A stretch of 64,000 nucleotides of DNA from Promethearchaeota archaeon (GCA_013375475.1 JABXKD010000002.1:1-64000), one strand, 5' to 3'. Positions 1 through 20,515 are shown, counted from the first letter of the stretch. The notes: generated from the sequence alone by a model not told the origin. Translations and numbers: made by a program.

Positions 1-410
1 AAATAGCATATATTCGCTTCAGTTTGGAAAATCCACCTGCCGATAAAATTGATGGACATTCAGATCCCTGGGGTTATATAATGGATAAGCTGATATTTTT
101 AGCCCATTCGGATGATTAGACTAAAAGTGAATAAAATGAGACTTTACACGAAAAAAAATTATAATACCTTAGTAGGAGGTGTGCTAGCTTTACTCTGCGG
201 TATATTGGTGACGGTATCTGATGACAGAGAATATCAATTGAATTTTGATTCTTTTGGGGTTGTGTTCCGGATTCTATTTTTTTCTCTATTTTTTCTATTA
301 CACTGCTTACTCTGAATAATTATTACTACTTTAACAGTAAAGTAAAAAAATAATTAAAGTAATTAGAAATACTGATTATTGTAAAAAATTAGAAATTTAA
401 ATCAAGTAAG

Positions 411-1028
411 TTAGACTTCCATATTATTGACATAGGTGTTATCCGGTTTATCTTGTATTCTCTTCTGTTTGATAAATGCTGAAAAATTCAAATAAAGAAG
501 CAATCCGAGAGAGATTAGACCGATAAACCATATGGGTGTCCTAGATAATAACATCGAGACTGCTATGAAGGAAAGGCAACACGTAAGCGGGTTCAACACC
601 TGTCCCACTAGTGGATTGCCTTGGGTGGTGTAGTAGTTCTGTTTAAGTTTATCAATTTGAGCGAATTTATTGTCTATAAATGTGCTTCCCCTGGTAAAAA
701 CAATTTTTAGTTTTAAGATGGTGTTATTTAAAAGAGTCAAATTCTCGCATCCTTCTATTACCAGGTGTTTAATGGTACAATTTTCGATGGAAATATTTTG
801 CGCGTTGCGACAGATTAACTTGTCGATTACGAGATTTTTGATCTGGTAATATGACCTGCTTCTGGATATTTTTATAAACAATGGGAGCGTTTCTACTTGG
901 TCAATGACTATTGGGTCAAGACTCGAACCATCTCCCTCCCAATTCATTTCGATTTTTAAGGCATCAATTTTTTTATCTGAGATTTTGATAATTTTAGACT
1001 TATTGTGTGTTAGGAGATTCTGAGCCAA
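411..1028 (-). CDS. hypothetical protein, short beta-helix-like repeat region followed by two C-terminal TM segments
   Basis: ORF; repeated short hydrophobic/Asn-rich units (LVIDKLICRNAQNISIENCTIKHLVIEGCENLTLLNNTILKL) and C-terminal hydrophobic segments. Confidence 0.5.
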   Translation of the reverse strand: MAQNLLTHNKSKIIKISDKKIDALKIEMNWEGDGSSLDPIVIDQVETLPLFIKISRSRSYYQIKNLVIDKLICRNAQNISIENCTIKHLVIEGCENLTLLNNTILKLKIVFTRGSTFIDNKFAQIDKLKQNYYTTQGNPLVGQVLNPLTCCLSFIAVSMLLSRTPIWFIGLISLGLLLYLNFSAFIKQKRIQDKPDNTYVNNMEV

Positions 1029-1106
1029 GATTATTATCCTCTATTAGCTTCATTAGTGGATGAGTTATTAATATTTAGGTAGAAGAGACTATAAAAAAGT
1101 TAGTAT

Positions 1107-1158
1107 AGTTTGAGTCGCCCACGATATTTCGAGATTGAAGTTGAGAAGTTGTTACTTT
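1107..1158 (+). repeat. dispersed repeat copy (divergent)
   Basis: agtttgagtcgcccacgatatttcgagattgaagttgagaagttgt. Confidence 0.6.
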
Positions 1159-1181
1159 AAAGTCTCACATATAGCTCTACT

Positions 1182-1604
1182 TTAGTAATACAACCACTTT
1201 ATGGTTTCTGGAATTAGGACAATGTATAAAAGAAAACTCTCGAGAATCATTTCTATGATGACGATTATAAGAATGACGACTAAGGATTCCTGTGCATTCT
1301 TTTTATATATAATTGAAAAAATCTTAACACCGAGAAAGATATTAATGAAGTATGTTACGATAACAAAAAAAATCTGAAAGAATGAATAAGTAATATCTAT
1401 AGATAAAAAAGATATAAAAAATAAGTCAAGAATGATATTAAAAAGAAATACCATGAGAAGCACTGCAGTTCTCCACAAAAGAATATAGTATAAAGAGATT
1501 CTAAATCGATAGCTCCATCCCTTTTTCCTCTCATACCAATTGACAAGCGTTATACCGATTATTATGATGATGGAATAGCGTAAAAGCTCAATGAATAAGT
1601 CCAT
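1182..1604 (-). CDS. small integral membrane protein
   Basis: ORF with several hydrophobic helices; no family recognised. Confidence 0.45.
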   Translation of the reverse strand: MDLFIELLRYSIIIIIGITLVNWYERKKGWSYRFRISLYYILLWRTAVLLMVFLFNIILDLFFISFLSIDITYSFFQIFFVIVTYFINIFLGVKIFSIIYKKNAQESLVVILIIVIIEMILESFLLYIVLIPETIKWLYY

Positions 1605-1632
1605 AATATTCTTTCCTTTTTTCTAACACCAT

Positions 1633-3117
1633 TTAAGAATAATTTTTCTCTTCATTATTTGATTTTATTGAAGGAATTGTTTTTTTTATTGTATATACGA
1701 TCACAAATAAAATAAGGCAATAAAGGGCAGTCATAGTTGGAAAGCTAAATAACATAAATGAGTAAGATGGAGTAGGATATTGTAAAAATGCTTGAGCACT
1801 CATGTTCATTGAAAACAGCTGAAAAATGAAAAAACCAATTAATCCACAACTAGTAGAAAAAAAAATAATTGCATCTGTTTTTGAGAGGTGAAACCCAAAC
1901 CATTTAGTAGTAAACTCCCTCGAATTATCAATAACTTTGACAATCTTATCCAAACGACGGTTTTTTAATATTTTTGCAATAGGATAATAGCAGAAAAGTA
2001 CAAGTAAGATAAATATAACATCAAAGAAATCAAAATCTAGTATTGAAAACCTAAAAAATCCTCCAAATAATAGAACAAAAGATATATACAACCAAGTGAT
2101 AACTACGATATATATTAGTGCTACTGAGAGTAAAATTATAGCCCTATGAGGAGTTAATCTAATTTGAAACCACGATAGCTTATCAGAAGTTTTTGTTCCT
2201 CTAGAGTTTGATTTTTTAAGAAAAAAACTAGAGATCATGAGAGCTAAAAATATACAGAAAAAAATTATGGTTACGATAAAGTCTTCATTTTGGTAAGGAT
2301 TAGGAGCGTTGGGAAATATTCCTAAAAAAGATGCTAATTCATTATTGAATAGTGCGAGGTGACAAAAGATCCTAGCTGAAACGAGAATAATCACTACAAA
2401 AGAAACTATAAAAACGAGAAGACTATAGTTCTTAGAAATCTTTTTTGATTTATCAATGGGTTTGCCTCTTCTAACAATAAATAAACTGTAAAGGCAAAAC
2501 AAAAAAAAGGTTGCCATTATTGCAATTGGAACATTATTTAACAAAATATCGTGCGAAGTTGCCTGATATGGCCCTAGGGGAATCAAACAAAGCGAATCAA
2601 ACAGACCTGAAGAAAAAAAAGGATGTAATATAGATTCAAAAAATAGTTGTACAATGAAGACTATCCCGACTAATGACACACAAAATATAAATAACGACTG
2701 ACCGTGAGATATTTTTAACCCAAAATAGCTTACGATTCTTTCTTGAGGAATGATTTTTTCTTTACCCTCGCGCGTGTTATTTTTGCGCAGTAAAATTTTT
2801 CTTAAAGCATAGATGCTTAGAATCAGAAATATAGTAGATACAATTATCCTTATAAGAATTGGAAAAAAATGGTAGATCAAGTAATTTTCAGGACGATAAG
2901 ATGAATCCAACAAGTACTCAGGAAGTGTATAGAATAGAAAATTAAATAAATTGATGAAAACATCTCCAGCTAAAGTACTAGGGATCATAAAAATCCCTAG
3001 AATGGATAAAATCAAAAATAAGCTGGTATGTGAACGACTTAACTCAAATCTAAATAATTTTAATCCTGAATTATTAAAACCTGACTTTTGTTTTTCTTTA
3101 TCTTCCATATTGATCAT
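1633..3117 (-). CDS. polytopic membrane protein with internally repeated units
   Basis: 494-aa ORF; repeated pattern (FRFELSRSHTSLFLILS / YFGLKISHGQSLFIFCVSLVGIVF / FQIRLTPHRAIILLSV / WFGFHLSKTDAIIFFSTSCGLIGF) suggests four homologous membrane modules. Confidence 0.55.
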   Translation of the reverse strand: MINMEDKEKQKSGFNNSGLKLFRFELSRSHTSLFLILSILGIFMIPSTLAGDVFINLFNFLFYTLPEYLLDSSYRPENYLIYHFFPILIRIIVSTIFLILSIYALRKILLRKNNTREGKEKIIPQERIVSYFGLKISHGQSLFIFCVSLVGIVFIVQLFFESILHPFFSSGLFDSLCLIPLGPYQATSHDILLNNVPIAIMATFFLFCLYSLFIVRRGKPIDKSKKISKNYSLLVFIVSFVVIILVSARIFCHLALFNNELASFLGIFPNAPNPYQNEDFIVTIIFFCIFLALMISSFFLKKSNSRGTKTSDKLSWFQIRLTPHRAIILLSVALIYIVVITWLYISFVLLFGGFFRFSILDFDFFDVIFILLVLFCYYPIAKILKNRRLDKIVKVIDNSREFTTKWFGFHLSKTDAIIFFSTSCGLIGFFIFQLFSMNMSAQAFLQYPTPSYSFMLFSFPTMTALYCLILFVIVYTIKKTIPSIKSNNEEKNYS

Positions 3118-3261
3118 TCTTTATTTTCTAATGCTAAATTGATTGATTAATTTAAAAAGATTCAGGATTGATTGTTGCTATTTATAACAAATAGTATGTC
3201 TTTTAATACATGAAATTTGTCTAATTACACATAAATGTCATCCTTCGTAAGGTTCATTTAC

Positions 3262-4563
3262 TTATAATAATGGTTTTTTTGGGCTTTTTTTTATGTAGAG
3301 GAAAGCTGTTGATACATTGATAACGGAAATGATTCCTATTAGTAAAATCATGATAAATAGGTTATATCCCGGGATTATTAATCTAGGATCAGTAAGTATG
3401 TCTCGATCAAATAAATAGATCCGATGTCTCCCTCCAGCTACTATATACCTACCATCAGATGATATATCTAAATTATAATCATAACTTGAGGCAAATGCTC
3501 CATCTAATCTATATCTCCATATTGGTATTGAACTATTTCTATTAAAAAGATAAAGAAAATTATCATAACTTTGTGCTGCAATATAGTCTCCATTATATGA
3601 AATAGCAACTGATGCAATTTCATCTTTTGTCAAGTAAATCCATTCGGGTGTTGGATTTGATCGATTAAATAAGTATACATTATGATCCGCAAAGCCACCT
3701 CCTACGGCAATATAATTTCCGTCTTTAGATACTTTAATAGAACCTACCTCATCAGAAGTGTTATATGTCCATATTGGAACTGAACTGTTTTTGCTAAAAA
3801 GATACACTTTATCACCGCCAGATGCTATATAATTACCGTCTGCAGATATCGATAAAGATACGCTCATATCCCCTGACAAAGTATAATCCCATTCAGGTGA
3901 AATTTTCGAGGTATTAAAAAAAAAAAGCTTTGCAGCATTATCAGTAACTGCCATATATTTACCGTTTGAAGAGAGTGCCACTCTAAGTGCTAAACCTGTT
4001 GTGGGAAATTCTAAAATTGAAGAAAGTTCTGTATTGTTAAAAAGAAAAACTTTATTACGCGTACCACTTGCGGCGGCTGCTAAAGTCCCATCATCAGTAA
4101 TCCCTACATCATAAATCCAACCTCCTGTATAATACAACCAGTGGGGTGTGGAATTTGCATTAGTAAAACTATAAGCCGTTGCTTCGGAGTAACCTCCACC
4201 TACAACAATGTTAGATCCACTTGCTGAAATCGCTACTGAACAGAAACTATTCACAATTGAATAATTCCATAACGGCTTCTTTGCGTTAGAAGTCAAGTTA
4301 TCAAATAAAAACAGCTTCCCATTTTCCGGCAAATTAATATTATACATATTATTCTGGCTGGTAGCTGTTATATAGTGACCATCAGAAGAAATTGCTACCG
4401 CAGAGGGGTATTGGTTTCCCGTTGAGTAGGACCATAGTGGAGTTGTTGAAGGATCTGAATATATAAAAGCAGAACTCTCACTAATTAACAAAGAATTCGC
4501 TAACATGATGAATGCAAATAAAAGTAAAAAATGAACCTTAAGTCGTTTTAAATTCATTTTCAA
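3262..4563 (-). CDS. secreted or membrane-anchored WD40/PQQ-like beta-propeller protein
   Basis: N-terminal signal-like helix, multiple repeats of the type 'vaISsDGnYIaag...vyLFnrnss.PiWxYxt', single C-terminal TM. Confidence 0.75.
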   Translation of the reverse strand: MKMNLKRLKVHFLLLFAFIMLANSLLISESSAFIYSDPSTTPLWSYSTGNQYPSAVAISSDGHYITATSQNNMYNINLPENGKLFLFDNLTSNAKKPLWNYSIVNSFCSVAISASGSNIVVGGGYSEATAYSFTNANSTPHWLYYTGGWIYDVGITDDGTLAAAASGTRNKVFLFNNTELSSILEFPTTGLALRVALSSNGKYMAVTDNAAKLFFFNTSKISPEWDYTLSGDMSVSLSISADGNYIASGGDKVYLFSKNSSVPIWTYNTSDEVGSIKVSKDGNYIAVGGGFADHNVYLFNRSNPTPEWIYLTKDEIASVAISYNGDYIAAQSYDNFLYLFNRNSSIPIWRYRLDGAFASSYDYNLDISSDGRYIVAGGRHRIYLFDRDILTDPRLIIPGYNLFIMILLIGIISVINVSTAFLYIKKSPKKPLL

Positions 4564-4793
4564 TATTAAATTAGCTGTATTTTTTTAAAAAATCACTGTA
4601 AGTTTTTTTAAATCTTCAATAATTCCTAATTTATTAATATTCCTTAAAAAGATTCAGTATCTATTGTTGTCAAACAAAACAAGATGTATGTCATGTAAGA
4701 CATAAACTTTGTTCAATTAAAATAAATATTCTAACTCATAAAAATTAGGTATAGAAGGTTTTAATAATCAATATACTATATTCTGTACTTAGG

Positions 4794-5258
4794 ATGAATT
4801 CTATTACCGATTTATTTGAAAAATATCATTTAGATAGTTTTGAGGAAGCGCTAGAGCTAAGAGGTAATGAAAAAATTACTTTTTTTAATGATCTAAATTC
4901 TCTATTAAGATCAATTTGCAGAATTTTTGATAAATTAACAACAATATTTTCTCTTAGGGGTGGGCAAGTATTGATGAGCTTAGCAAAATTACAGGATTCT
5001 GAAGAGGTTATCTCCAAAACTGATGTATTGAACTGTTTAAATATAGATCGGCGGGAAAAATTGATCCACGCTTTTGATTATTTATTAGAGCAGAATTATA
5101 TTAAGATTAAAAAAAAAACGAGTAAGTTTCATATGGTTAAATTGAATGAACAGGATAACCCCGATTTTACCTTATTACGGGAAATCGTGCAGAAATTTTG
5201 GACCTCACCTCAGGAGGAAAAAGATAAAGCAAAATCATGGAGTGGAATAGAACGATAA
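4794..5258 (+). CDS. hypothetical protein, possible winged-helix-like region
   Basis: ORF; overlaps the start of the next ORF by about 22 nt, suggesting translational coupling. Confidence 0.45.
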   Translation: MNSITDLFEKYHLDSFEEALELRGNEKITFFNDLNSLLRSICRIFDKLTTIFSLRGGQVLMSLAKLQDSEEVISKTDVLNCLNIDRREKLIHAFDYLLEQNYIKIKKKTSKFHMVKLNEQDNPDFTLLREIVQKFWTSPQEEKDKAKSWSGIER

Positions 5259-6127
5259 GGCAAAACCGGAAAATTCCAGAGATTAGATTTGAGAACGATG
5301 AAAATGCAAATCAGTTTTTTACATTGATTAAAACGGAATATTTAAAAAATTTATATCAAACCTATTTTTGGTTAATTTTGCTGGTTACGATCTATGTGGT
5401 TTACGAGTTAATAACGACTTCTTTTACTCCTACCATTACAATATTAATTATAGACCAAGTCATCATCTGCGTGCTTCTTTCGTTCTACTTATTAATCTAC
5501 TTCTTCAATTTATCCTATATCAGGTTTACACCTACAATAATAAATTTTCTTGAAAAAGAATTGCGCTTGCTAGATTTTAGGTTTCAAAGGAAATATAAGA
5601 TCAGACCCTCCAACTTTTTATTTGTTTGTTTTACAATTATTGTATTTATTCTCGTTACAATTGGTACTTACCTTTATTCTAACAACGATGTAATATCCCT
5701 CATTATGAGATTACTTATTGTTTATATCTTTACAGGCATTACAATACCGGTACTTCGCGGGAAATTACACGATTTTTTTATTGTAAGCTTGAAAAATTCA
5801 TATTTTGTTCAAATAGAACTAAGGTTTAAATTAATTAAACATAAAGAAGTAGAATCTCAAACGGTTAAAATTTTTATGACCTCAAATAAGTTAGGTTCTA
5901 AAGCAGATCACTCAGGAAATGCGCGTTATAATAGAATAAGTGAAAAAAGATGGCTTCAAAGGAAAAATAACCGAACTTTACCACGTTTTATAACTAGAAA
6001 CTCTCTCTTTTTTCATGAAAATGCCACTTTAATAAACTTCAAGGAACAATTTTTGAATATCGTTTCAGCAATTCGAGAGTGGGATACAACTAAAGGTTCA
6101 GGCTTAGAGTGGAACAGGTTTGTGTGA
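5237..6127 (+). CDS. membrane protein (about 4 TM), coupled to the upstream ORF
   Basis: ORF with paired TM helices; its 3' end runs into a dispersed repeat copy. Confidence 0.5.
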   Translation: MEWNRTIRQNRKIPEIRFENDENANQFFTLIKTEYLKNLYQTYFWLILLVTIYVVYELITTSFTPTITILIIDQVIICVLLSFYLLIYFFNLSYIRFTPTIINFLEKELRLLDFRFQRKYKIRPSNFLFVCFTIIVFILVTIGTYLYSNNDVISLIMRLLIVYIFTGITIPVLRGKLHDFFIVSLKNSYFVQIELRFKLIKHKEVESQTVKIFMTSNKLGSKADHSGNARYNRISEKRWLQRKNNRTLPRFITRNSLFFHENATLINFKEQFLNIVSAIREWDTTKGSGLEWNRFV

Positions 6128-6186
6128 GTAGTTGACGATACGCGTAAGTTTAGTTTCGAAGTTGAGAAGTTGTGTTCCTGAATTAA
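6093..6186 (+). repeat. dispersed repeat copy (long form)
   Basis: aaggttcaggcttagagtggaacaggtttgtgtgagtagttgacgatacg...tagtttcgaagttgagaagttgtgttcctgaatt. Confidence 0.8.
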
Positions 6187-6242
6187 ATTTTTTTTATTCT
6201 ATTTGCAATTCCAAATCGCATAAGGAGATTAAATCTCTCTAT

Positions 6243-6485
6243 CTAAATCCTCCAGTCTACAGATTTTAGAAATATATATAAAAATCCTCCTATCAATCCA
6301 ATTATGGCAGATATTACTATACAAAGGACAGAATTATTTCCTCCTATCGCTGTTACATTCCTCGATTCACATTTAGGGCAATTTCGTAGGTAATCTCCTT
6401 TTTTAGGGCAATTTGCATCTGATCCATGTACTTTTACAGAGAATCTATGATTACAGTCTTTACATCTATATTTGCATTCTGTCAT
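6243..6485 (-). CDS. small zinc-ribbon protein with C-terminal TM helix
   Basis: CKYRCKDCNHRF...CPKCESRN plus C-terminal hydrophobic helix. Confidence 0.55.
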   Translation of the reverse strand: MTECKYRCKDCNHRFSVKVHGSDANCPKKGDYLRNCPKCESRNVTAIGGNNSVLCIVISAIIGLIGGFLYIFLKSVDWRI

Positions 6486-6596
6486 TTTTTCACTTACGAA
6501 TTTTTATTCACTTTAGACTGTATATTGGTTTTAGGATATATAAAGCTATTTCACCTTTTTGGTGGTGAAAATGGGATTTTATGTGTAAAAAGAAGT

Positions 6597-6693
6597 AAGG
6601 TTCAGACTTAGAGTGAATCGGGTTTGTGTTGAGTGGTAGACGATACGAGTTTTGTTTCGAGATTGAAGGGAAGGGGTGGAGTTCCAGATAAAT
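6597..6693 (+). repeat. dispersed repeat copy (long form)
   Basis: aaggttcagacttagagtgaatcgggtttgtgttgagtggtagacgatacg...tgtttcgagattgaagggaaggggtggagttccagat. Confidence 0.85.
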
Positions 6694-6820
6694 TTTTTTT
6701 ATTTTTAATCCCATTGAATAACGATAGGAAATATTATTATTGTCTGACTTATTCATTTTTTTAATTAATTGCTACCTTAGCAAACCATTCATACATAAAT
6801 ATCGAATTTATTGTGAATAA

Positions 6821-7981
6821 ATGATACAAGAATTAGAAAAAAAGGACTTTCAAAAAGTAGAGTATTTGTTTGGGGAAAGATCTTTTATTAATAGTTTCCG
6901 AAGTCACCTTGAAAGAACTCCTGTTCCAAAACAAGTGTTTGTAGATGATATAAAAAATCCACAAACAGCGGTAATTATCATTATTCCTAGTCTCTTCTTT
7001 GGAGGTCGAGCGGATAACGAGGAGTTCAACAAAGAATTAAGAAAAATGCTTTATGAAGATCTGCTTCTAATTTTCAAAGAAAAACAACTTCTAGAAATTG
7101 ACTGTTATGTTTCTAACAATGCTTGGGAGAAAGCCGTAAAATCTGTTCTCAAAGATCCATTTCTCTATAATCGATACTATTATGAGATTAAAGAACTGAA
7201 GCTGAAGCATTGGAGAAACCTTATTCCTGAAGGTTATAGTATAAAACCAGTCGATCTAACACTATTGGAAAACGATTATTTGAAAAACTTTGACTGGTTG
7301 ATAGAGGAAATAGAAGAAAATTGGTTTCCCCTTGAAGATGGTTTGAAGGAAAATCGAGGATTCTATCTAGTTCGAGAACAAGAAGAAATAGTATGTTGGT
7401 GCACAACCGAATATCTAACGGCTGATAATGAAATTGAGGTTGGCATAGCAACGAGAGAGGAGTATCAAAGAAAAGGTTTTGCTTCAATAATTGGTTCAGC
7501 AACAGCTGAATTTTGCCTAGAAAAGTACAAGTCTGTTGGATCGCATTTTGGTATTACTAATGTTGGTTCTTATAAAACTGCAGAAAAGATTGGGTATGAA
7601 AAGATAAGAGAATACAAGAAAGCAGCAGCTTTCATTAATCAAGTGGATAATTGGGTCGCAAATGGTTTTCAGAAATCACGGAATAAAGATTATGAGGAAT
7701 CCATCAGTTGGTACGAAAAAATTGTCGATGCTGCAAATAAAGAAACTACAGAATATCTAGAATCCTACTATCTTAATGGAGAATTTCCTATTGAACGAGT
7801 ATGTTTCAGAATAAGTACTTTTTTTTCTGCGTTAGGTAATATTCAGAAAGCAGTTGATTATCTAAGAAAGGCGATTGAAATCGGATTTAAAGAAAAAGAG
7901 GAACTTCTTGAATGTAAATTATTGGAACCCCTGCATGGAACAGAAGAATGGAATAAAATGATTCAACTAATGAGAAATTAG
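6821..7981 (+). CDS. GNAT-family N-acetyltransferase with C-terminal TPR-like region
   Basis: EIEVGIATREEYQRKGFASIIGSATAEFCLEKY acetyl-CoA-binding type motif; C-terminal 'GNIQKAVDYLRKAIEIGFKEKEELLECKLLEPLHGTEEWNKMI' resembles a TPR-like unit. Confidence 0.75.
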   Translation: MIQELEKKDFQKVEYLFGERSFINSFRSHLERTPVPKQVFVDDIKNPQTAVIIIIPSLFFGGRADNEEFNKELRKMLYEDLLLIFKEKQLLEIDCYVSNNAWEKAVKSVLKDPFLYNRYYYEIKELKLKHWRNLIPEGYSIKPVDLTLLENDYLKNFDWLIEEIEENWFPLEDGLKENRGFYLVREQEEIVCWCTTEYLTADNEIEVGIATREEYQRKGFASIIGSATAEFCLEKYKSVGSHFGITNVGSYKTAEKIGYEKIREYKKAAAFINQVDNWVANGFQKSRNKDYEESISWYEKIVDAANKETTEYLESYYLNGEFPIERVCFRISTFFSALGNIQKAVDYLRKAIEIGFKEKEELLECKLLEPLHGTEEWNKMIQLMRN

Positions 7982-8010
7982 ACATATTCAACTCTTTTTC
8001 ATATTAGTAT

Positions 8011-8050
8011 TCAAGATTTAAGAGTGGGATTGTGTTCCAGATTTAATTTT
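8011..8050 (+). repeat. dispersed repeat copy (3' half)
   Basis: tcaagatttaagagtgggattgtgttccagattt. Confidence 0.65.
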
Positions 8051-8231
8051 CTATTTGTTTTTTTCTATTTCGCTAATTAACTTAAATCTTGGGAGTTCAT
8101 ATTGAATGGTCAGCTCACAGTTCGATTCCTTAGAAATTTTCATTAACATATTAAACTCCTTTCAATGCTTTTTATAAAAATATTTATCGAATATCAATCA
8201 AGAATTTGGTTATTTCCATATTTTTAGGAGA

Positions 8232-8408
8232 TTATTGATCATAATCCTCTTCATGGAAAGCGTTTTCATTATCACCGTTTTCCTTATCTTCATCGTCTTT
8301 TGAATTCCACTCATTGTCTTCTTCTTTTGTTTTCTCTTCTTCACGATTCCAACTCCTCTCATTCCATTCATCCGTTTTCATTCTTTTTCTAAACTTAATT
8401 TTTTTCAT
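8232..8408 (-). CDS. 58-aa highly charged small protein (below the ORF-track cutoff)
   Basis: Hand translation: MKKIKFRKRMKTDEWNERSWNREEEKTKEEDNEWNSKDDEDKENGDNENAFHEEDYDQ*; biased composition with repeated WN motifs. Confidence 0.35.
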   Translation of the reverse strand: MKKIKFRKRMKTDEWNERSWNREEEKTKEEDNEWNSKDDEDKENGDNENAFHEEDYDQ

Positions 8409-8524
8409 AATTTAAATCTCCTAACCATTTTTTCTAAAGTACAAATTAAATTTCTTTTAAAATTCTTAGACATAATTATTATACCATATAAAATTTCTAC
8501 ATATTAATTCCGGTAATCTAGGAT

Positions 8525-8566
8525 TGATGTTTCGAAATTGAAGTGTGGAATTGTGTTCCGGGGTTA
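8525..8566 (+). repeat. dispersed repeat copy (3' half)
   Basis: tgatgtttcgaaattgaagtgtggaattgtgttccggggtt. Confidence 0.75.
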
Positions 8567-8592
8567 TTACATCACAATTTTTTATCTTTTGT

Positions 8593-8799
8593 CTATGTAA
8601 CGCTGTGTAAATGAAGTGCGAGTAGTATTATACTAACAATGAGAAATAGTATCCCTGGTGCTAGAAAACCGACGATGAATATTAAATCATAACCTGCAGA
8701 GCTGGTATTAACTCCAATTACACCTATAGTTAGTAGCATTATCCCTATAATCAGAAGGGTAATCCCTAGAGTTTTTTTATTAATAGCCATTAAGATCAC
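8593..8799 (-). CDS. small two-TM membrane protein
   Basis: 68-aa ORF with two hydrophobic segments. Confidence 0.45.
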   Translation of the reverse strand: MILMAINKKTLGITLLIIGIMLLTIGVIGVNTSSAGYDLIFIVGFLAPGILFLIVSIILLALHLHSVT

Positions 8800-8871
8800 G
8801 CTTTTTATTAGTTTGATATAAATATGTATTTACTGTGTATATAATGTTTAGCTATTTCAAATACCTACTCA

Positions 8872-8912
8872 ACAAGTTCCGAGATTGAAGGGTGGGAGTG
8901 TGATCCGGAGTG
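8872..8912 (+). repeat. dispersed repeat copy (3' half)
   Basis: aagttccgagattgaagggtgggagtgtgatccggagtg. Confidence 0.75.
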
Positions 8913-9037
8913 TTTACTTCATTATTTTTTAGATTCTTTTTTTGTTGATGATTTTATTTATTTTAACAATCATTACAATAACTTTTTATATTCGACATTC
9001 AATTTATCTAATGTTTCAAAATCTCAAGATTAATATT

Positions 9038-10024
9038 ATGAAATATAGAGTTTTAGGAAAAACAGGATATAAAGTTTCAGAGATATCAATTGGAACATGG
9101 CAATTAGGAGGTAAATGGGGAGAACCATTCGATAAAGCTATAGCTCAAAATACATTATCTACAGCAGTTTCAAATGGAATCAATTTCTTTGATACTGCTG
9201 ATGTGTATAAAGAAGGCCAAAGCGAACAATTTTGTGGTAGTTTTTCAAAATCTGCTAATGAAAAAGTCTATGTTGCAACCAAATGTGGTAGACGATTAAA
9301 TCCTCATAATACTGAAGGATATAACGAGGAAAATATTAGAAAATTTGTTGATGATAGTTTAAAGAATATGGAAATTGAGACAATTGATTTACTTCAACTT
9401 CACTCTGCTCCAACAGCAGTATATTATAGACCAATGGTCTTTGATATTTTAGATTCCTTGAAAGATGAAGGGAAAATTCAAAATTATGGTGTAAGTGTGG
9501 AAAAAGTTGAAGAGGCATTAAAAGCTATTGAATTTCCAAATGTATCTACTGTACAAATTATTTTTAATGTATTTCGACAAAGGCCAAGCGAATTATTATT
9601 TGAGCAAGCTAAAAAGAAAAACATCGGCATTATTGTTCGTGTTCCATTAGCAAGTGGACTACTTACTGGAAAATTCACCAAGGATACTGTATTTAAAGAG
9701 GGAGATCATAGATATTTTAACAGGAATGGAGAAGCATTTGATAAAGGTGAGACATTTGCAGGAGTGGATTATGAAATAGGATTAAAAGCTGTTGAAGAAA
9801 TAAAGAAAGTCTTTGGAAATCCTGAAACTCTTGCTCCTTATGCATTACGTTGGATTTTGATGTTTGATGCTGTTTCTTGTATCATTCCGGGTGCAAGTCG
9901 GGTATCCCATGTTGAATCAAACATTCAAGCTTCAGATTTAGAGCCTTTATCAAATGATCAAATGGTTCAAATTCAAGAAATCTATGAAAAAAATATTAAA
10001 CAGACAGTGCATCATATCTGGTAA
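9038..10024 (+). CDS. aldo/keto reductase
   Basis: MKYRVLGKTGYKVSEISIGTWQLGG...FFDTADVYKEGQSEQ...VATKCGRR...IDLLQLHSAP; start re-set from the ORF-track 8942 because the preceding 32 aa are not AKR-like. Confidence 0.9.
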   Translation: MKYRVLGKTGYKVSEISIGTWQLGGKWGEPFDKAIAQNTLSTAVSNGINFFDTADVYKEGQSEQFCGSFSKSANEKVYVATKCGRRLNPHNTEGYNEENIRKFVDDSLKNMEIETIDLLQLHSAPTAVYYRPMVFDILDSLKDEGKIQNYGVSVEKVEEALKAIEFPNVSTVQIIFNVFRQRPSELLFEQAKKKNIGIIVRVPLASGLLTGKFTKDTVFKEGDHRYFNRNGEAFDKGETFAGVDYEIGLKAVEEIKKVFGNPETLAPYALRWILMFDAVSCIIPGASRVSHVESNIQASDLEPLSNDQMVQIQEIYEKNIKQTVHHIW

Positions 10025-10116
10025 ATAAAATTTCTTCTTTAATAATATTCGGCCCTTTTTTTCGATTTTCTATTGATAACTTTATAAAAAAAAAATTGAA
10101 AATTATTAGAGTCAAA

Positions 10117-10323
10117 TTATTCTCTAACTATTAAATATATAATACAACCGATACACCCAGACAATAATACGATTAATAACCATACAGCAGCATTCATATC
10201 CCTTTTCTTGGCGTCTTTGTATACCCATACGACCAATCCTATAGCAACAATCCAAAAAATGATAAAAAATATAATTATCCCTATCATTAAGGGTGTTATC
10301 ATTACAGTAGATTGAAAAATCAA
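10117..10323 (-). CDS. small membrane protein, PLDc_N-like
   Basis: WVYKDAKKRDMNAAVWLLIVLLSGCIGCIIYLIVRE resembles the PLDc_N two-TM domain. Confidence 0.6.
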   Translation of the reverse strand: MIFQSTVMITPLMIGIIIFFIIFWIVAIGLVVWVYKDAKKRDMNAAVWLLIVLLSGCIGCIIYLIVRE

Positions 10324-10526
10324 TATAATTTCCTCATTTAATATTCAATAAATATTATTCCTCTGAGTAAAAATATCCTAAATTATCTAAAAATTTTTTT
10401 TTTGAATTATTTTTAGGATAATCTAAGAATTTTTGAGACATTCTAACCACTTTTATTGAATTTTACACTTTTGTTAAAAAAAGAATCTTATAAATTTAAA
10501 TATTTCCACATAGGATTACTTAAAAA

Positions 10527-10597
10527 AAGGGTTTGTGTTTAGTGATAGACGATAGTGTTTCGAGATTGCAGGGTGGGAGTGTGTTCCAGATTATATT
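10527..10597 (+). repeat. dispersed repeat copy (both halves)
   Basis: aagggtttgtgtttagtgatagacgatagtgtttcgagattgcagggtgggagtgtgttccagatta. Confidence 0.85.
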
Positions 10598-10682
10598 CAA
10601 TGATTGATTTCAATGAAAATTCTATGGAAAAAATTCTAATCAATTAAATTATGGAGATGTGAAAAAATACAGAAAAAGGTAA

Positions 10683-12170
10683 TTATTCTTGTCCTTTTCT
10701 TTTGCGTCTAATTAGCAGTATAGTTGCTATGCCTATTACTGCTATTCCACTTATAGTTGAAATTATAATAACCAATTCGAGAGGAAATATATCGATACAA
10801 GTATTATTTATGAAGATGTTTCCTTCACAATTTTCTTCTTTAATGCATTTACCATTTTCAATTAAACTATTTCCCGAAATTGTGTTGAAATCACTTGCAA
10901 TTAAATATATTCCGCTTAAACCGTTTTTATTTGCAGTGTTTCCAGTAATTATATTGTTGCTACTATAATGTAAAAACACTCCGCTGAACTGGTTTTTATT
11001 TGCTATGTTATCAGTAATATTGTTATGTTCACTATCATGTAAATATACCCCATATCCTCGATTATTATTAAGAATGTTTCCAGAAATAATATTAGTATCA
11101 CAGATCCAGGAACTGATGCCATCAAAATTATCGGATGCATTGTTTTTTGAAACAGTGTTATAATAACTAAATTCTAAATCGATTCCAGATTCGGAATTGC
11201 CGTCTACAGTATTCTCCCATATGTTGATAATATAGCTTTCACTTAAATAAATCCCATCATTATTATTATGGCTTGCTATATTTCCCGTGATGTTAATATT
11301 AGTGCAAGAAGATAACGTAATTCCTATGGATCCATAAGAAGTATTTAAGTTTTCAAGTGAAGATTCATGACAATCATACAATATAACTTGTCCAGCATTC
11401 GTGAAATTATCTGACCCTAGGTTTATTTTATCGTTATAATAATAAACAGGTTTTCCGTTCACCAGATTTGTAGAATCTGCATTTATACTATTTGATGATA
11501 GGTCTCCATATAAAATCATCCCACAGTCGTTCATTCTATTATTCGAAATTGTGATATTATTACAAATAAATATATCTATCCCATCTCGCCCCCAATACAA
11601 GCTATTATTAACAATAGTATTATTATTACTAAAGTATAAGAATATCCCGCTCTCAATGCTATAAGTTGCGGTATTTTCTGAAATGGTGTTATTATTACTA
11701 TAACTTAATCTTATCCCGATATAGTGAGATGAACAATTATTTTTGATTAATTGGGAATTGTTAATATTATGCAACTTGATTCCCGCATCTGATCCCATTG
11801 GACCCGAATTATAGACAGTACAGTTTTCAATTTTAAAAAAAACATTGGAATTTTCAATCAGGATGCAACTTCCCGAACCTCCACCGTCAATTACTAAGTC
11901 TTCTATAATATAAGGCTCGGAATATGTTCCGTTTCCCGTGCAGATTCCCGCAGTCTTCGCAGCAGTCCAATTATTATCAATATGAATTTTTCCTGAAACT
12001 GTTGAGATTTTCAAATTTTTATCATCTGAATTGGTATCATCGCTGAAATCTGGACTTTTGTTGCTATTATCAGTAGTAAAACTAAGCTTAGTACTAACAA
12101 TTGGGAATAAAGCGAAAATGACTCCTAAAGTTATGAGAATTATTATTTTTGATTTTCGATTTGATTTCAT
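10683..12170 (-). CDS. secreted right-handed parallel beta-helix protein (NosD/PbH1-like), C-terminal TM anchor
   Basis: Many repeats of 'NNTISgNtasxNxxsGIyLxxSxxNxItxN'; signal peptide; C-terminal TM followed by RRKRKGQE. Confidence 0.8.
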   Translation of the reverse strand: MKSNRKSKIIILITLGVIFALFPIVSTKLSFTTDNSNKSPDFSDDTNSDDKNLKISTVSGKIHIDNNWTAAKTAGICTGNGTYSEPYIIEDLVIDGGGSGSCILIENSNVFFKIENCTVYNSGPMGSDAGIKLHNINNSQLIKNNCSSHYIGIRLSYSNNNTISENTATYSIESGIFLYFSNNNTIVNNSLYWGRDGIDIFICNNITISNNRMNDCGMILYGDLSSNSINADSTNLVNGKPVYYYNDKINLGSDNFTNAGQVILYDCHESSLENLNTSYGSIGITLSSCTNINITGNIASHNNNDGIYLSESYIINIWENTVDGNSESGIDLEFSYYNTVSKNNASDNFDGISSWICDTNIISGNILNNNRGYGVYLHDSEHNNITDNIANKNQFSGVFLHYSSNNIITGNTANKNGLSGIYLIASDFNTISGNSLIENGKCIKEENCEGNIFINNTCIDIFPLELVIIISTISGIAVIGIATILLIRRKRKGQE

Positions 12171-12277
12171 TCTGATTTTATTAAAATTTTTAAGAGTATC
12201 GCTAACGAAGTAAGCTAATAAAATATTTAAGAGTAGACTTTTCGTTTTACAAATTTTTTAATTTTCTTATTAAGATT

Positions 12278-12322
12278 TAGGTTTGTGTTGAGTGGCGACG
12301 ATACGATCCTACTCCGAAATCT
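12278..12322 (+). repeat. dispersed repeat copy (5' half only)
   Basis: taggtttgtgttgagtggcgacgatacgatcctactccgaaat. Confidence 0.65.
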
Positions 12323-12406
12323 TTTAAGATAATTTAGTATTTATAAAATAGGAAAAAAAAAGATACCGTTATTTCTGCTTTAATATTGCATTTATTCAAT
12401 ACAATT

Positions 12407-12904
12407 TTAAGGGAGATATGTTTGAATTAACAATGTACTCTCATCAATCGCATTATTCAGGAAGTTCCCCTGTATGCTTATAGTCGCATTATGAAATCCT
12501 GGTAAAATTGTATCTGTAGCCATTTGAAGTGTAACCGACCCACTCATTTCTTGATGATTACTTGAAAATTCTGTTTCTGGAGAAACAGGACTCGATATTA
12601 CATACCCATCGAGTACAAATTTGAATATAATTGTAGCCACTCCAATTTCGACTAATGTAGCATGAGTATTAAAAAGACCATACACCGATTCTCCTGATTT
12701 TACCGTAAAATTAATTGTAATTGCGTTGATATGAATATCTGTGTAAGTTGGATTTGTGAAATGGACTCCTGAATCATATACAAACCAGGTTTTCTGAATA
12801 CCACTATTTTGTTCCGGAGGGAGAGTTAGAGAAATTACTCCTAACACTAAACCAGATAATCCAATAATAAGGGCAAAGAATACTAATCCCTTTCCTTTTC
12901 CCAC
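12407..12904 (-). CDS. hypothetical exported protein
   Basis: N-terminal TM/signal segment, beta-rich remainder. Confidence 0.45.
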   Translation of the reverse strand: MGKGKGLVFFALIIGLSGLVLGVISLTLPPEQNSGIQKTWFVYDSGVHFTNPTYTDIHINAITINFTVKSGESVYGLFNTHATLVEIGVATIIFKFVLDGYVISSPVSPETEFSSNHQEMSGSVTLQMATDTILPGFHNATISIQGNFLNNAIDESTLLIQTYLP

Positions 12905-13329
12905 AATAGATCACCTCTTTAATTTTGTTTTATTATATTTATTTTTGTATCTTTTTAATTATCTTCCACATCTGATATATTATAAATTTTCTTGTATATC
13001 TGTGGAACAATTTTTCATCAAACTCATTGGTTTAATTATAGGGATTTTTATACATTCTGTATTTGCCAATCTATTTGACACATTAATCCCGTGAAAAAAG
13101 TAAATTGAAATGAATTAGAAAAGGCTAAAAAGAAGTTATTACTATCTTATTAGATTATAAAGATATGTTTTAAATTTAACTAAGTTTTTAATTTTCAATT
13201 CGCACCTTACGAGTTTTATGCGAAGCATATTCCGATTTCTACTTCGAATAACAAGAGCATTTCTTTACGTTTACAGTAAATCGGATTTATAATATTAATT
13301 AGCTTAAAAAATTAAAGAGCAGAATAAAT

Positions 13330-13722
13330 ATGCCTAAAATGAAAAAAAAACAGCAAAAAAAGGGACGGAGGAGTTACACTCCTAATCCAACTCCGACAGT
13401 GTCGAGAGTTAAAATGCCATATAGAAAGAACGGAGAGATGTTTGCGCGGGTTACTGACATTTATGGTCAAGAGCGGATGGGTGTCTATTGTGAGGATGGA
13501 AAACACCGTAATGGAAGAATCCGGGGAAAAATCAAAAAACGAGTGTGGGTAAGAAAAGGAGATTTAGTCATAATTAATCCTTGGGAATTTGAAACGGCAG
13601 TTGATGGTAAACCAGAGAAATGCGAAATCTCTTGGAGATATTTACGACATGAAGTTTCTTATTTAGAACGAAATAGAAGAATTCCTAAATCTTTAGAAAT
13701 TAATAACATTCCTCTCCTCTAA
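13330..13722 (+). CDS. eif1A: translation initiation factor aIF-1A
   Basis: RVKMPYRKNGEMFARVTDIYGQERMGVYCEDGKHRNGRIRGKIKKRVWVRKGDLVIINPWEF; OB-fold S1/IF1 signature. Confidence 0.93.
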   Translation: MPKMKKKQQKKGRRSYTPNPTPTVSRVKMPYRKNGEMFARVTDIYGQERMGVYCEDGKHRNGRIRGKIKKRVWVRKGDLVIINPWEFETAVDGKPEKCEISWRYLRHEVSYLERNRRIPKSLEINNIPLL

Positions 13723-13856
13723 AATTTTTTTTTTTCAAGAAATAAAAAAAGATAAGATTCGATAACAATCGCAGAACAAATTCTTACTAATTACTACCTA
13801 CTACTTACTATATATTAAATATTATTATATTTTATTGATTTGTAACAAAAAGAAGT

Positions 13857-14099
13857 CTAATATCGAAAATCTCGAACTTGCGCAGGAGCGGCTTCTGTTA
13901 CTACTACATTACTCGCAGCAGGACCCTTATCACCTTGAGTGATTTCAAATTCTACTTTATCTTCTTCGTTTAGTGTAGCAAATTCATCATTCTCTTTAAC
14001 AATAGCAGTGTGATGAACGAATACATCTCCTTCTTCTTCAGTTGCAATAAATCCATAACCTTTACGGTTATTAAACCATTTAACTGTACCTATAGTCAA
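13857..14099 (-). CDS. cold-shock domain protein (CspA family)
   Basis: [37 protein letters not shown]1 (KGYGFI) and RNP2 (DVFVHHTAI) motifs. Confidence 0.95.
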
Positions 14100-14258
14100 T
14101 TTTAAAACCAGTTTTCATATAAATTGTTTTTTTTTTATCAGTTCATACTGAACTATTTAAGAAAATTAATGATGATGTAAATAGTTTACTCCCAGAAATT
14201 GTAAATTGACTTATAATTTTTCTATTTATTACCATTCTCCTTTAATGCAAAATTATAA

Positions 14259-14300
14259 TTTGTTTCGAGATTAAAGGGTAGGGTTCTGTTCCTGATTCTA
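14259..14300 (+). repeat. dispersed repeat copy (3' half)
   Basis: tttgtttcgagattaaagggtagggttctgttcctgattcta. Confidence 0.7.
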
Positions 14301-14485
14301 GTTTCCCTTTTTTTTGGAGAACTATATAAATAACATTAGGTTAAATTATTCATGCTTTTTTCTGAAGGAGTCACACTTGGTTAATTATTTAAGAATTTTT
14401 GTTTCTAATCTAATACTTAGACTTAATTGTATATTGCTCAATAAATAAATTTTTTATTATTTATTTTACTTCCCCAGTTGATTTC

Positions 14486-14704
14486 TTAAATACCTTTTCT
14501 AGTGATTCCAATTATCGTGTTACATTGAGAACATACACTCACATCTAAAGAGACATCTGCTGTTTTTTGAGAGTGTATATAAATTGGAGATTTTATTCGC
14601 ATTGTCAGAAGGTTATTAGTTCTTAAAAGACCCCTTTCATCTTTTTCGATGTGCATTTCACTCTTGCAGTGAGGGCAAACCATCGAACTAGCAGGTTTAA
14701 ACAT
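14486..14704 (-). CDS. small zinc-ribbon-like protein
   Basis: CPHCKSEMH...CSQCNTII, two CxxC pairs. Confidence 0.5.
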   Translation of the reverse strand: MFKPASSMVCPHCKSEMHIEKDERGLLRTNNLLTMRIKSPIYIHSQKTADVSLDVSVCSQCNTIIGITRKGI

Positions 14705-14987
14705 ACTTTTTAATCACTTTTTATTACATTTTTGTTGAGAGTTAGAATAAGTGATCCCTAAATATAATAAAAATATACCGTTCATAAAAATTAAATAATT
14801 GGAAACGGTACCTTCTCAGAATGATCAAAAAAAAGATTTAATAAGAAGCTGACATGCTCTAAAGTCTTAAGAACGCTTAAAAAATAAAATTTCTAGGTAA
14901 TATTTTTGATAATTAGATTCTGATACCGAGACTTATTTCTCTCTTATAGATTTTATCAATCTAATCGCTTAAATTGAAAATTAGCAA

Positions 14988-15449
14988 CTATACTTTATGT
15001 CTTAGGTATATTGCTTGTAATCTAAAGGCTTGATAAATATGACCGATTGTGTGATGTATTATGAATCCAAACCAATCTTCGTACGTCATTTCTCTCCCAA
15101 AAGGCGATTCAAACGTTTCTTTAAGATCCTCTTCTGTATATTTAACCCTAACTTCTACATAGGCTTCAATTGCTTTACTAAATAAATCTAATAATTGCTC
15201 GTGTAAAGGTGCGGTGGATTCAGGATCTAACTTAATTGTTATTTCTGTACTACTTGCATTAGGATTATCCATTTTTTTCATCGCCATATATAATGTACTG
15301 ATAGAGTGTATAAATAAATATTGAGCGGTTTTTTCGCGTTTAAATAACGGAGTGTTCATGGATTCCTCAAAATGATTATCCTTTCGCTTTTCAAACAAAC
15401 TTTTAGCGTAATCATATACAAACTTCAGAGATTTGATACTTTCTGGCAT
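14988..15449 (-). CDS. DinB-like superfamily protein
   Basis: Four-helix character with C-terminal HHTIGHIYQAFRLQAIYLR typical of DinB-like proteins. Confidence 0.5.
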   Translation of the reverse strand: MPESIKSLKFVYDYAKSLFEKRKDNHFEESMNTPLFKREKTAQYLFIHSISTLYMAMKKMDNPNASSTEITIKLDPESTAPLHEQLLDLFSKAIEAYVEVRVKYTEEDLKETFESPFGREMTYEDWFGFIIHHTIGHIYQAFRLQAIYLRHKV

Positions 15450-15525
15450 AATTTTTAATATAGGATGTTAAGTAAATAAATTTTTTGGTATAAATGACTA
15501 TTAGGTAGTGGGAGTGCGGCCTAGA

Positions 15526-17061
15526 TTATTTTTTTCTTTTGTCTATCTCTAGGTCGATGGACACAACAACATTCCTATCAATTTCTGGATTATACTGGCT
15601 CAAACAGGTTATTCCAACTACGTCTCGAGACTCTAGAATTGCTATTAGGTTAGGATCAGTAACAATTGCTACCGCCCGTTGCCCATTGACATGCGTACCA
15701 ACTAGAACTCCTCTTTTTGGTTGCTCTGATCGATCGTAGATAATAGAATATCCGTCAATAGTAAGCGTACCGTTCGCTTGTTCAATTGGTTCAGGTAATG
15801 TTTGTGCTAAAATAGATTCTTGGATTTTGGAATCATCTCGAACACCCCAATCTTCCTTTGGTGGTTTAGATCCATAGATTCCAATTGATTGTTTAGTGTT
15901 ATACCCTCCATTAGCTATAACCATTATTTTCAGTGAAGGATCGGAGCGTATTAATTCAACAGTGTTGATAATTGCATGTAACGAATAATTACTTAAGGGA
16001 GAGCCAAAATATGGAAGACCTCCTGTAACTGTTAAGTCGCGAGGATCACCCTCTTTAATTCCAAGTTCTTTAATAAAGATTTCTACAATTGAAGGAAAAC
16101 AACTATATAAGTCAAATTTATCAATATCACTTAGTTCTAGGCCCGCTTGTTCCAAAGCTATTCGAGAACCCTCTTTTATTGCAGGGGAACTATCAAGTCT
16201 TGGACGACGATAAATCTGGTTTATATTTTTTAAATCTACTCCTCCCATTATATATATCCAATGTTTTTTATCAATATTAAGTGATTTAGCAATGGCTTCA
16301 CTTGTAAGTATAATTGTTCCCGCTTGATCAACAAAATTATTGGCGCACATACGTTTGGTGTAGGGATATACGACACGACGATTTTCAGGATAAGGAGTCG
16401 CAATTTCTTTAGCACTAAGATATTTTTGAGACCAGCTTAAAGGGTTTTTTGAAGCTACCTTAGAAAAGCGTTCCATTAGTTCTCCCATGTATTCATTATG
16501 CTCCTCAATACTGCGACCAGATGAAGCTCTTAGGGCTGTTTCGAATATTGCGTAAGTAAGTGATGGAAAATATAAGCTATATTTCTTATCAATTTCAGTG
16601 ATATCCCAATTCTCCCCATACATATATTTTGGTGGTTTTTTCTTCGGCCAATGTTTAGGACGCAAACCTTTGAATAGCTTATTAATAGAGTAAGCTGCCT
16701 CTCCACCCGTAATAAGGATACAACGGTGCTTTCCAGAAACTATAGCTTTTACAGCTCGATTAACCAACATTTGAGGACTTTGACCACCATCGGGTAAATA
16801 GATTTTTTCTTTAGGCTGGATATTGAGCTTTTTAGCAAGTTCACCAGGAGCGTCTTCGTATGACCAAGAGCTGATATTTACCATATAAATAGCATCAATA
16901 AAATTGATGATCCTTCTAGCATGTGTGCTTTTTATTGCGTCTTGACCAGTTTTGACCATTAAACTGAGTGAATCAAGAGGTTGAGGGGTACCTTTACGTT
17001 GAGTAAACTGTGCAGCTCCGATTATAATTGGAATATATTTTTTCCCCATGATATGTAACAA
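15526..17061 (-). CDS. thiolase-like protein (acetyl-CoA acetyltransferase family)
   Basis: IPIIIGAAQFTQRKGTPQPLDSLSLM; GGQSPQMLVNRAVKAI; FVDQAGTIILTSEAIAKSL; DKFDLYSCFPS; LTVTGGLPYFGSPLSNYSLHAI; small beta-barrel at C-terminus. Confidence 0.8.
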   Translation of the reverse strand: MLHIMGKKYIPIIIGAAQFTQRKGTPQPLDSLSLMVKTGQDAIKSTHARRIINFIDAIYMVNISSWSYEDAPGELAKKLNIQPKEKIYLPDGGQSPQMLVNRAVKAIVSGKHRCILITGGEAAYSINKLFKGLRPKHWPKKKPPKYMYGENWDITEIDKKYSLYFPSLTYAIFETALRASSGRSIEEHNEYMGELMERFSKVASKNPLSWSQKYLSAKEIATPYPENRRVVYPYTKRMCANNFVDQAGTIILTSEAIAKSLNIDKKHWIYIMGGVDLKNINQIYRRPRLDSSPAIKEGSRIALEQAGLELSDIDKFDLYSCFPSIVEIFIKELGIKEGDPRDLTVTGGLPYFGSPLSNYSLHAIINTVELIRSDPSLKIMVIANGGYNTKQSIGIYGSKPPKEDWGVRDDSKIQESILAQTLPEPIEQANGTLTIDGYSIIYDRSEQPKRGVLVGTHVNGQRAVAIVTDPNLIAILESRDVVGITCLSQYNPEIDRNVVVSIDLEIDKRKK

Positions 17062-17232
17062 TCTTCCTAATGTTAGAGTAAATTTTTTATTTTTATTAAA
17101 AATTGGTTAATTTTGGTCATTTCTCTGAACAAAATAAATTAATGACAAAAATTTAAATATCAAATTAACCGTTTAATTCTTGGCGGATATTTTTATCAAT
17201 CCGTGGCGAATTACATATTGAAGTGAAATCTA

Positions 17233-18198: not shown

Positions 18199-18449
18199 AT
18201 CTTTTTGTGAAAAGGAAAACAATTAAAACCGTGTAAATACTGTTTAATTCACAAATAATATTCTTTCGTGAGATAATTGGAAGAATTGTATTAATCTTCA
18301 CTTTATAGCTACCTTAAAATTTTAACTTCAAATTAAGTATTGAGAGCATTTAACACTTTGCTTCAAAAATAATAAGAAATAAGAATTAATAAAAAAAATT
18401 AGATTGATATTTTTCCATTCGAAAACTTTTAACGCTCCTTATTTGTAGA

Positions 18450-19481: not shown

Positions 19482-19484
19482 AAT

Positions 19485-19913: not shown

Positions 19914-20515
19914 AAAAAATCACAATACTTTTTTTACTGTAAAAAATCTTTTTACTATAAAAATTATTATTACTTTTTCTATTTAAATGTTTGCATAGAA
20001 TCCTTTTTTTTTTACAAAAATTTATCAAAATTAGAGTAGAAGAAGGGTAATTAAGTATCTCATATTAAAACTAAAAACTTAAAAATTTTATTAAATATGG
20101 ATACAAACTATTTTTTGAGCGAAATATTTCGAAGGATTTAAACTTCTGCTAACATTTTTAATGTATTTTTCTGCCTATTTTCTATATTTTCTACATTTTC
20201 GAAGTTACTTCTTTTTAAAAACAGCTTCAAGTATTTGTGCTCGTTTTTCGTTATCTTTAACGATTGCAGAAATCTAGAATGACGATAAATATTCCAATCA
20301 GTACTTTGCATGGTACCATTGAAATGTTAGATCAGGATTATAAAGAAGATGAGTATGAGAGTTTTCTATTAATTCGGGTTATAATAACAAATAAGATAGA
20401 TTTCGAATAATTTAACTTGGTTCATTCTTTTTCTAACGAAACTAGTTAAGTTTTATTAACGCGTTCAGTCAGATTTAATTCATGAGATTTAAATAGAAAA
20501 AAATTACATAAATGC

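What the first reader, a model, noticed from the sequence alone, without database searches (positions are those of the whole stretch)
252..15530. Uncharacterised family of dispersed, same-strand intergenic repeats confined to the accessory part of the window
At least nine recognisable copies (1107, 6093, 6597, 8011, 8525, 8872, 10527, 12278, 14259) and two weak ones (about 252-276 'ttttggggttgtgttccggattcta'; about 15500-15526 'ttaggtagtgggagtgcggcctagatta') share the core TGTTTCGAGATTGAAGGGTGGGAGTGTGTTCCAGATT. Fuller copies also have a 5' module GGTTTGTGTTGAGTGGTAGACGATACG. All are on the + strand regardless of flanking gene direction, lie in or at the edges of intergenic spaces, and most are followed within about 5-25 nt by a T-rich tract. 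I saw none from 15.6 to 64 kb. The pattern fits a mobile or regulatory element, a terminator or small-RNA family, or eroded gene fragments.
Basis: partly seen in the sequence, partly recalled or inferred. Interest (0 to 1): 0.8.

Follow-up and report, generated by a model that had tools for sequence, protein, structure and literature searches.

The report
Gene array built from 23S-rRNA tails
The repeats are broken copies of the tail end of the 23S ribosomal-RNA gene, scattered on one strand through a zone beside that gene where a Lokiarchaeal archaeon has collected one accessory gene after another, so the archaeon appears to have an integron-like gene-collecting site with no recognisable integrase.

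Summary
The repeats are real: seven significant plus two to four eroded copies, all on the + strand, found in the 3.9-Mb genome almost only in this window. They are not an orphan family. They are partial copies of the 3' end of the 23S rRNA gene, its G-rich/C-poor trailer and the terminator behind it. The genome is a Lokiarchaeal MAG.

In relatives the 23S gene is followed directly by the gene block that starts at about 18.37 kb in the window. Window 1-18.36 kb is an insertion zone between the two, usually with one or two accessory genes between repeats. The same architecture recurs in other genera, and probably a second family, each with its own trailer and on the 23S strand. Copies share a 3' edge at the terminator T-tract but have variable 5' edges. 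Unselected DNA of the genus has no such repeats.

No integrase, resolvase, reverse transcriptase or attC structure explains it. Most likely genes are inserted at the 23S terminator with duplication of the upstream trailer, then shuffled by homologous recombination. Origin and position are shown; the insertion chemistry is inferred.

The parts
1..18364 (.). accretion zone: accessory genes and repeats inserted between the 23S rRNA gene (left of the contig start, not assembled) and the conserved downstream block
   Evidence: synteny with 23S-flanking loci of relatives; left boundary lies off the contig
215..274 (+). eroded copy, 3' end only (weak, E 0.7)
1107..1143 (+). eroded trailer copy
   Evidence: (E 0.06), blastn
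6093..6184 (+). trailer copy beginning at the 23S 3' processing region
   Evidence: 8e-16
6597..6700 (+). fullest trailer copy with T-tract
   Evidence: (1e-36 to consensus)
8010..8043 (+). short copy (terminator part)
8526..8564 (+). short copy (terminator part, hairpin type)
8872..8912 (+). short copy (terminator part, hairpin type)
10526..10597 (+). trailer copy, middle and 3' parts
   Evidence: (6e-20)
12275..12320 (+). trailer copy, 5' part only
   Evidence: 6e-4; 0.09
14255..14304 (+). short copy with T-tract
15506..15532 (+). very weak copy
   Evidence: only, 25 nt at 80%
6821..7981 (+). cargo: GNAT acetyltransferase with TPR; found in 2 of 39 genomes
8942..10024 (+). cargo: aldo/keto reductase
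10683..12170 (-). cargo: NosD-type beta-helix protein
13330..13722 (+). older cargo: aIF1A-like protein, 87% identical in the G007 zone
18365..31903 (.). start of the conserved block that directly follows 23S in relatives without arrays

Best explanation
The repeats are partial direct duplications of one native sequence: the last 0-130 nt of the 23S rRNA gene, its G-rich C-poor 3' trailer, and the terminator behind it. They are left each time an accessory gene is inserted just downstream of the 23S rRNA gene, so the zone between 23S and the next conserved gene grows as an array: terminator copy, gene, terminator copy, gene. SHOWN: derivation from 23S plus trailer; position between 23S and the conserved block (in relatives; in the window by synteny); orientation; usually one or two genes per interval; recurrence in several genera with each genome's own trailer; common 3' edge at the T-tract with variable 5' edge. 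INFERRED: (1) new DNA is joined at the end of the 23S terminator, where a strongly transcribed, R-loop-prone trailer ends, and repair of a staggered break duplicates the trailer on the far side of the insert; (2) once direct repeats exist, ordinary homologous recombination between them, and with incoming DNA carrying the same trailer, excises, exchanges and re-inserts units. I hold the accretion reading at about 0.9 and this insertion mechanism at about 0.35.
For: A complete LSU_rRNA_archaea gene ends directly before one copy in three genomes and blastn joins gene, trailer and repeats. Own-genome trailer copies lie downstream of 23S on the same strand in G010, G034, G026, G037, G050, G051, G046, G059 and G064. 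The zone lies between 23S and a block conserved across the genus; homology of close relatives ends at the T-tract, +159 to +195. Interval medians 1.1-1.3 kb, usually one or two genes. 3' edges near +152 (sd 28), 5' edges -128 to +78. Trailer GC skew +0.69. Control 39:0 direct to inverted in zones, 0 in 249 kb elsewhere. Mixed 3'-end types in one array and non-monotone identity to the resident trailer suit later recombination.
Against: The window's own 23S gene is not in the assembly, so its link to the zone is by synteny. Cargo origin is not traced outside the group. No empty and filled pair differing by a single unit was found, so the junction reaction was not seen. A few copies break the pattern (an internal 23S fragment -153..-35 in G051; copies at distant loci in G053, G010 and G000). 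R-loops and breaks are inferred from composition only.
Confidence: 0.6

Rival explanations
1. Site-specific recombination: the 23S trailer/terminator serves as the attachment site of an unidentified recombinase that captures single-gene circles, as in integrons or in elements that use tRNA 3' ends.
For: Unit sizes, one orientation, variable cargo in both directions and recurrent short copies of about 45-60 nt resemble a site array.
Against: No serine recombinase in 8 genomes; tyrosine recombinases are few (mostly one per genome), lie on contigs other than the arrays, and none was found in G010, which has an array; 5' edges vary by about 200 nt; no foldable site.
Confidence: 0.22
2. Homologous recombination alone: circles or fragments from relatives that carry a 23S tail integrate by single crossover at the 23S tail, leaving a displaced partial tail each time.
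For: Direct repeats of variable length with diverged copies are what single crossovers leave; at G010:C89 a HerA-like gene end is duplicated at 95% around a piece of 23S array; mixed 3'-end types within arrays. SAR11 HVR2 beside 23S was explained by homologous recombination (PMC2217521).
Against: Does not by itself explain why homology always stops at the T-tract or why most units hold only one or two genes.
Confidence: 0.25
3. Retro-copying: trailer RNA is reverse transcribed from its 3' end and inserted, giving 3'-anchored, 5'-truncated copies.
For: Fixed 3' and variable 5' edges.
Against: No reverse transcriptase (PF00078) in 8 genomes; copies are clustered beside 23S on its own strand, and hold genes between them.
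Confidence: 0.04
4. Retained terminators: the copies are kept by selection to stop transcription within the zone, and their spread is incidental.
For: The terminator end is the part kept in nearly all copies; the hairpin is 96.7% paired.
Against: Copies stand on the 23S strand whatever the gene direction; it explains retention, not origin; covariation is modest (32 of 500 shuffles).
Confidence: 0.08
5. Decay of duplicated rRNA genes: the fragments are leftovers of former tandem 23S genes.
For: Some copies hold up to 130 nt of 23S.
Against: No copy holds more than the 23S tail, and the trailer end is the common part; units contain unrelated genes.
Confidence: 0.05
6. Assembly artefact of metagenome-assembled genomes.
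For: rRNA regions misassemble in MAGs; many copies lie near contig ends.
Against: The same pattern occurs in many separately assembled MAGs, including long contigs (G051:C35 323 kb, G034:C1 205 kb), and copies are typically 8-23% diverged from the resident trailer, not identical.
Confidence: 0.03

Closest known systems
Integron gene-cassette arrays, including those of Asgard archaea (Ghaly et al. 2022, PMC9668308)
   Same: Single-gene units of about 1 kb separated by related sites in one orientation; host-specific site sequences; variable cargo.
   Different: No IntI, no attC structure or R boxes, genes in both directions, sites derived from the host 23S rRNA tail and of variable 5' length.
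Serial insertion of integrative elements at the 3' ends of tRNA (or other RNA) genes
   Same: The target gene 3' end is kept intact while displaced 3'-end copies mark insertions, all in one orientation.
   Different: No integrase in the units, units hold one or a few genes, displaced copies have no common start, and the target is the 23S tail and terminator.
SAR11 hypervariable region HVR2 beside the 23S rRNA gene (Wilhelm et al. 2007, PMC2217521)
   Same: A hypervariable island directly beside the 23S gene, no attC sites, homologous recombination at rRNA genes proposed.
   Different: HVR2 is a large surface-polysaccharide island between 23S and 5S; repeated 23S tails between its genes were not mentioned in the passages read.

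Membership tests
Integron / CALIN | attC sites with R boxes (RYYYAAC / GTTRRRY) and a conserved single-strand fold | tested here: not met
   no properly spaced R-box pair in 8 window copies; no fold beyond shuffled controls on either strand
Integron / CALIN | integron integrase (tyrosine recombinase with IntI domain) near the array | tested here: not met
   PF00589 hits are on contigs other than the arrays; none in G010. CALINs lack IntI, so this alone is not decisive; the IntI-specific domain itself was not tested
Integron / CALIN | array of small single-gene units with sites in one orientation | tested here: met
Integrative elements at RNA-gene 3' ends | displaced copies of the target gene 3' end in direct orientation | tested here: met
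Integrative elements at RNA-gene 3' ends | constant crossover point, seen as a common start of the displaced copies | tested here: not met
   5' starts from -128 to +78
Integrative elements at RNA-gene 3' ends | integrase gene in the element | tested here: not met
   none among 20 window proteins scanned
rRNA-adjacent hypervariable island (SAR11 HVR2-like) | variable gene content between 23S and a conserved neighbour | tested here: met
   (in relatives with assembled 23S; in the window by synteny)
rRNA-adjacent hypervariable island (SAR11 HVR2-like) | exchange by homologous recombination at the rRNA gene | not testable with these tools
   needs population or strain data
Described RNA family (Rfam) | match to a described RNA | tested here: not met
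   no Rfam match for the window copies; they match the flank of LSU_rRNA_archaea genes in relatives
Retroelement / group II intron copies | reverse transcriptase in the genome | tested here: not met
   PF00078 absent in 8 genomes

The most novel reading that the evidence does not exclude
Lokiarchaeia have a gene-capture system, separate from integrons, that uses the transcription-termination zone of highly expressed genes (23S rRNA first, perhaps thermosome and ribosomal-protein genes too) as a loading site for single genes, leaving a terminator copy as the recombination handle of each captured unit; the second repeat family 'B' may be its partner or a sister system.
Probability: 0.3. Interest if true: 0.92.

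Novelty: new variant of a known kind. Interest (0 to 1): 0.75.

Why it matters
How Asgard archaea acquired their mosaic of genes is an open question tied to the origin of eukaryotes. This gives a defined chromosomal address, beside the 23S rRNA gene, where genes arrive one or two at a time, with recognisable scars that can be counted and compared between strains. It also shows that a repeat family that looked orphan is decoded by the host's own rRNA trailer, a test that can be applied to other genomes.

Tried and rejected
Unknown small-RNA family: no Rfam match, no fold. Phage origin: no match in phage records or viral contigs (exact patterns only). Integron: see membership test. Serine recombinase and reverse transcriptase: absent. 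16S rRNA tail as source of family B: not supported. Strict 'youngest next to 23S' order: identity to the resident trailer is not monotone, although copy quality in the G007 array declines with distance. Per-gene terminators for + strand genes: the copies follow genes of either direction.

Full report
OBSERVATION. I rebuilt the family with an iterative profile HMM and a blastn consensus search of the whole 3.9-Mb genome. All nine named copies exist, all on the + strand. Seven are individually significant by HMM, one more by blastn (12275), and the rest are eroded (1107 and the two weak ones). In the genome the family occurs only in this contig, apart from a 47-nt copy of the 23S end at C155:146. 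Nothing lies between 15.6 and 64 kb.

WHAT THE REPEATS ARE. Searching 97 related genomes gave strong hits in eight members of the same genus, on one strand per contig. Reading upstream of the fuller copies showed the constant sequence TCGAAAGAGGAGCTCAAGGTTCAGGCTTAGAGTG and further GC-rich sequence. Rfam then identified a complete LSU_rRNA_archaea gene ending just before one copy in each of three genomes, and blastn joined gene, trailer and repeats. The family is therefore the 3' end of the 23S rRNA gene plus its trailer and terminator. Exact-pattern hits in named records are all Candidatus Lokiarchaeota MAGs.

WHERE THE ARRAY LIES. In relative G009 the 23S gene is followed, 1.27 kb on, by the gene block that starts at window 18365; in others by the same block with fewer genes. 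Upstream of 23S, genomes G009, G006, G010 and G012 are collinear, mostly at 87-98% protein identity. Downstream, homology runs from 23S to +159 to +195, the end of the T-tract, and is then lost until the conserved block. The variable zone is thus bounded by the 23S terminator and the conserved block. In G007 it is at least 36.8 kb long, with repeats recognisable in the first 19 kb. In the window it spans 1-18364. The window's own 23S gene is missing from the assembly, so this last link is by synteny.

ANATOMY. Intervals are 0.35-5 kb, median 1.1-1.3 kb, usually with one or two complete genes in either direction. Cargo in the window includes a WD40-like beta-propeller, a Zn-ribbon protein, a GNAT acetyltransferase, an aldo/keto reductase, a NosD-type beta-helix protein, an aIF1A-like protein, a cold-shock protein, a DinB-like protein, a thiolase-like protein and a Gtr/Rag-Arf-like GTPase. 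No recombinase or transposase was found among the 20 proteins scanned. The GNAT gene is present in only 2 of 39 genomes. The aIF1A-like, Zn-ribbon and GTPase genes keep the same order in G007, so part of the distal zone is inherited and the rest differs.

GENERALITY. Comparing each genome's own 23S tail with its own downstream DNA found same-strand copies in G010, G034, G026, G037, G050, G051 (five), G046 (three), G059 (four), and one weaker copy in G064 of another family. Trailers differ between lineages and the copies follow the local trailer. The few opposite-strand matches are in the T-rich part. Many other genomes have no copies. Control: 0 short local repeats in 249 kb of unselected genus DNA, against 39 direct and 0 inverted in 78 kb of zones.

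EDGES. Across genomes with a known resident trailer, 3' edges lie near +152 (sd 28), in or just after the T-tract; 5' edges run from -128 to +78 (sd 65) relative to the 23S end (one internal 23S fragment in G051 is left out). Two types of 3' end, a hairpin GGAGT..ACTCC followed by T-rich sequence, or ATTATATTTTTTTT, alternate within single arrays. Hairpin pairing is 96.7% with one two-sided change; 32 of 500 shuffles reach this, so covariation support is modest. Trailers are G-rich and C-poor on the transcript strand (mean GC skew +0.69), a composition known to favour R-loops (general knowledge). Copy quality declines with distance from the 23S side in G007 (rho -0.58, p 0.02), but identity to the resident trailer is not monotone elsewhere.

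MECHANISM. A common edge at the terminator and a variable edge inside the trailer are what a staggered break at the end of a transcribed, R-loop-prone trailer would leave if foreign DNA were captured and the gap filled: the trailer is duplicated on the far side of the insert and the resident 23S-trailer stays intact. Direct repeats then allow homologous recombination to excise and exchange units, which suits mixed end types and non-monotone identity. The accretion statement is well supported; the break-repair step is inference. Dedicated recombinase, homologous recombination alone, retro-copying, selection for terminators, decay of duplicated rRNA genes and artefact are the rivals.

COMPARISON. 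It works like an integron array or like serial insertion at an RNA-gene 3' end, but fails defining tests of both: no attC, no integrase found, no single start point of the displaced copies. The nearest published case I read is SAR11 HVR2, a hypervariable island between 23S and 5S genes with no attC and with homologous recombination proposed at the rRNA genes (PMC2217521); repeated 23S tails were not mentioned in the passages read. Integrons in Asgard archaea are described (PMC9668308). The literature search covered open-access text only.

Noticed in passing
L062:1275-1385; G000:C177 15618-29308; G000:C111 99493-102371; L116, L117, L119; window 10595-10631 (-): A second intergenic repeat family 'B' (TTTTCAAAGGAATTTTCATTGAAATCAGACTCTGAATTTACCTTTCC, palindromic core TCAGACTCTGA) forms same-strand clusters with one to a few genes per interval across the genus and in a complete genome of genus g8. 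It often stands convergently just behind a 23S-trailer copy, and behind the true 23S trailer in G053. Source unknown.
   Followed up: partly
L034 (G010:C89) 954-1061, 15140-15210, 17047-17143, 19916-19997: Another direct-repeat array beginning right behind a thermosome-like gene, with genes between the copies.
   Followed up: partly
L034 4822-5329 and 7842-8349: The end of a HerA-like ATPase gene is duplicated (95%) around a 2.5-kb insert that contains two 23S-trailer copies and a GTPase gene: a piece of 23S array moved to another locus.
   Followed up: partly
L040 (G022:C141) 631-875 and 7843-8088: The region just behind an rpS11-like gene is duplicated (82%, 246 nt) around 7 kb holding a 23S-trailer copy and two B copies.
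   Followed up: partly
window 3152-3236 and 4644-4727: Direct repeat of 85 nt (75%) on both sides of the beta-propeller gene 3262-4563, unrelated to the 23S family.
   Followed up: no
window 10683-12170; L031 7436-10006; L040 4141-6603; L060 3398-5845: NosD-type beta-helix proteins recur next to 23S-trailer copies in four different genomes, as if favoured cargo.
   Followed up: no
G053:C1 728255 and 932700; G054:C1 487423 and 1134980: In two single-contig genomes of genus g8, 23S tail fragments lie far from the 23S gene.
   Followed up: partly
G051:C35 between 94583 and 95357: About 0.77 kb of extra sequence inside the 23S gene, possibly an intron.
   Followed up: no
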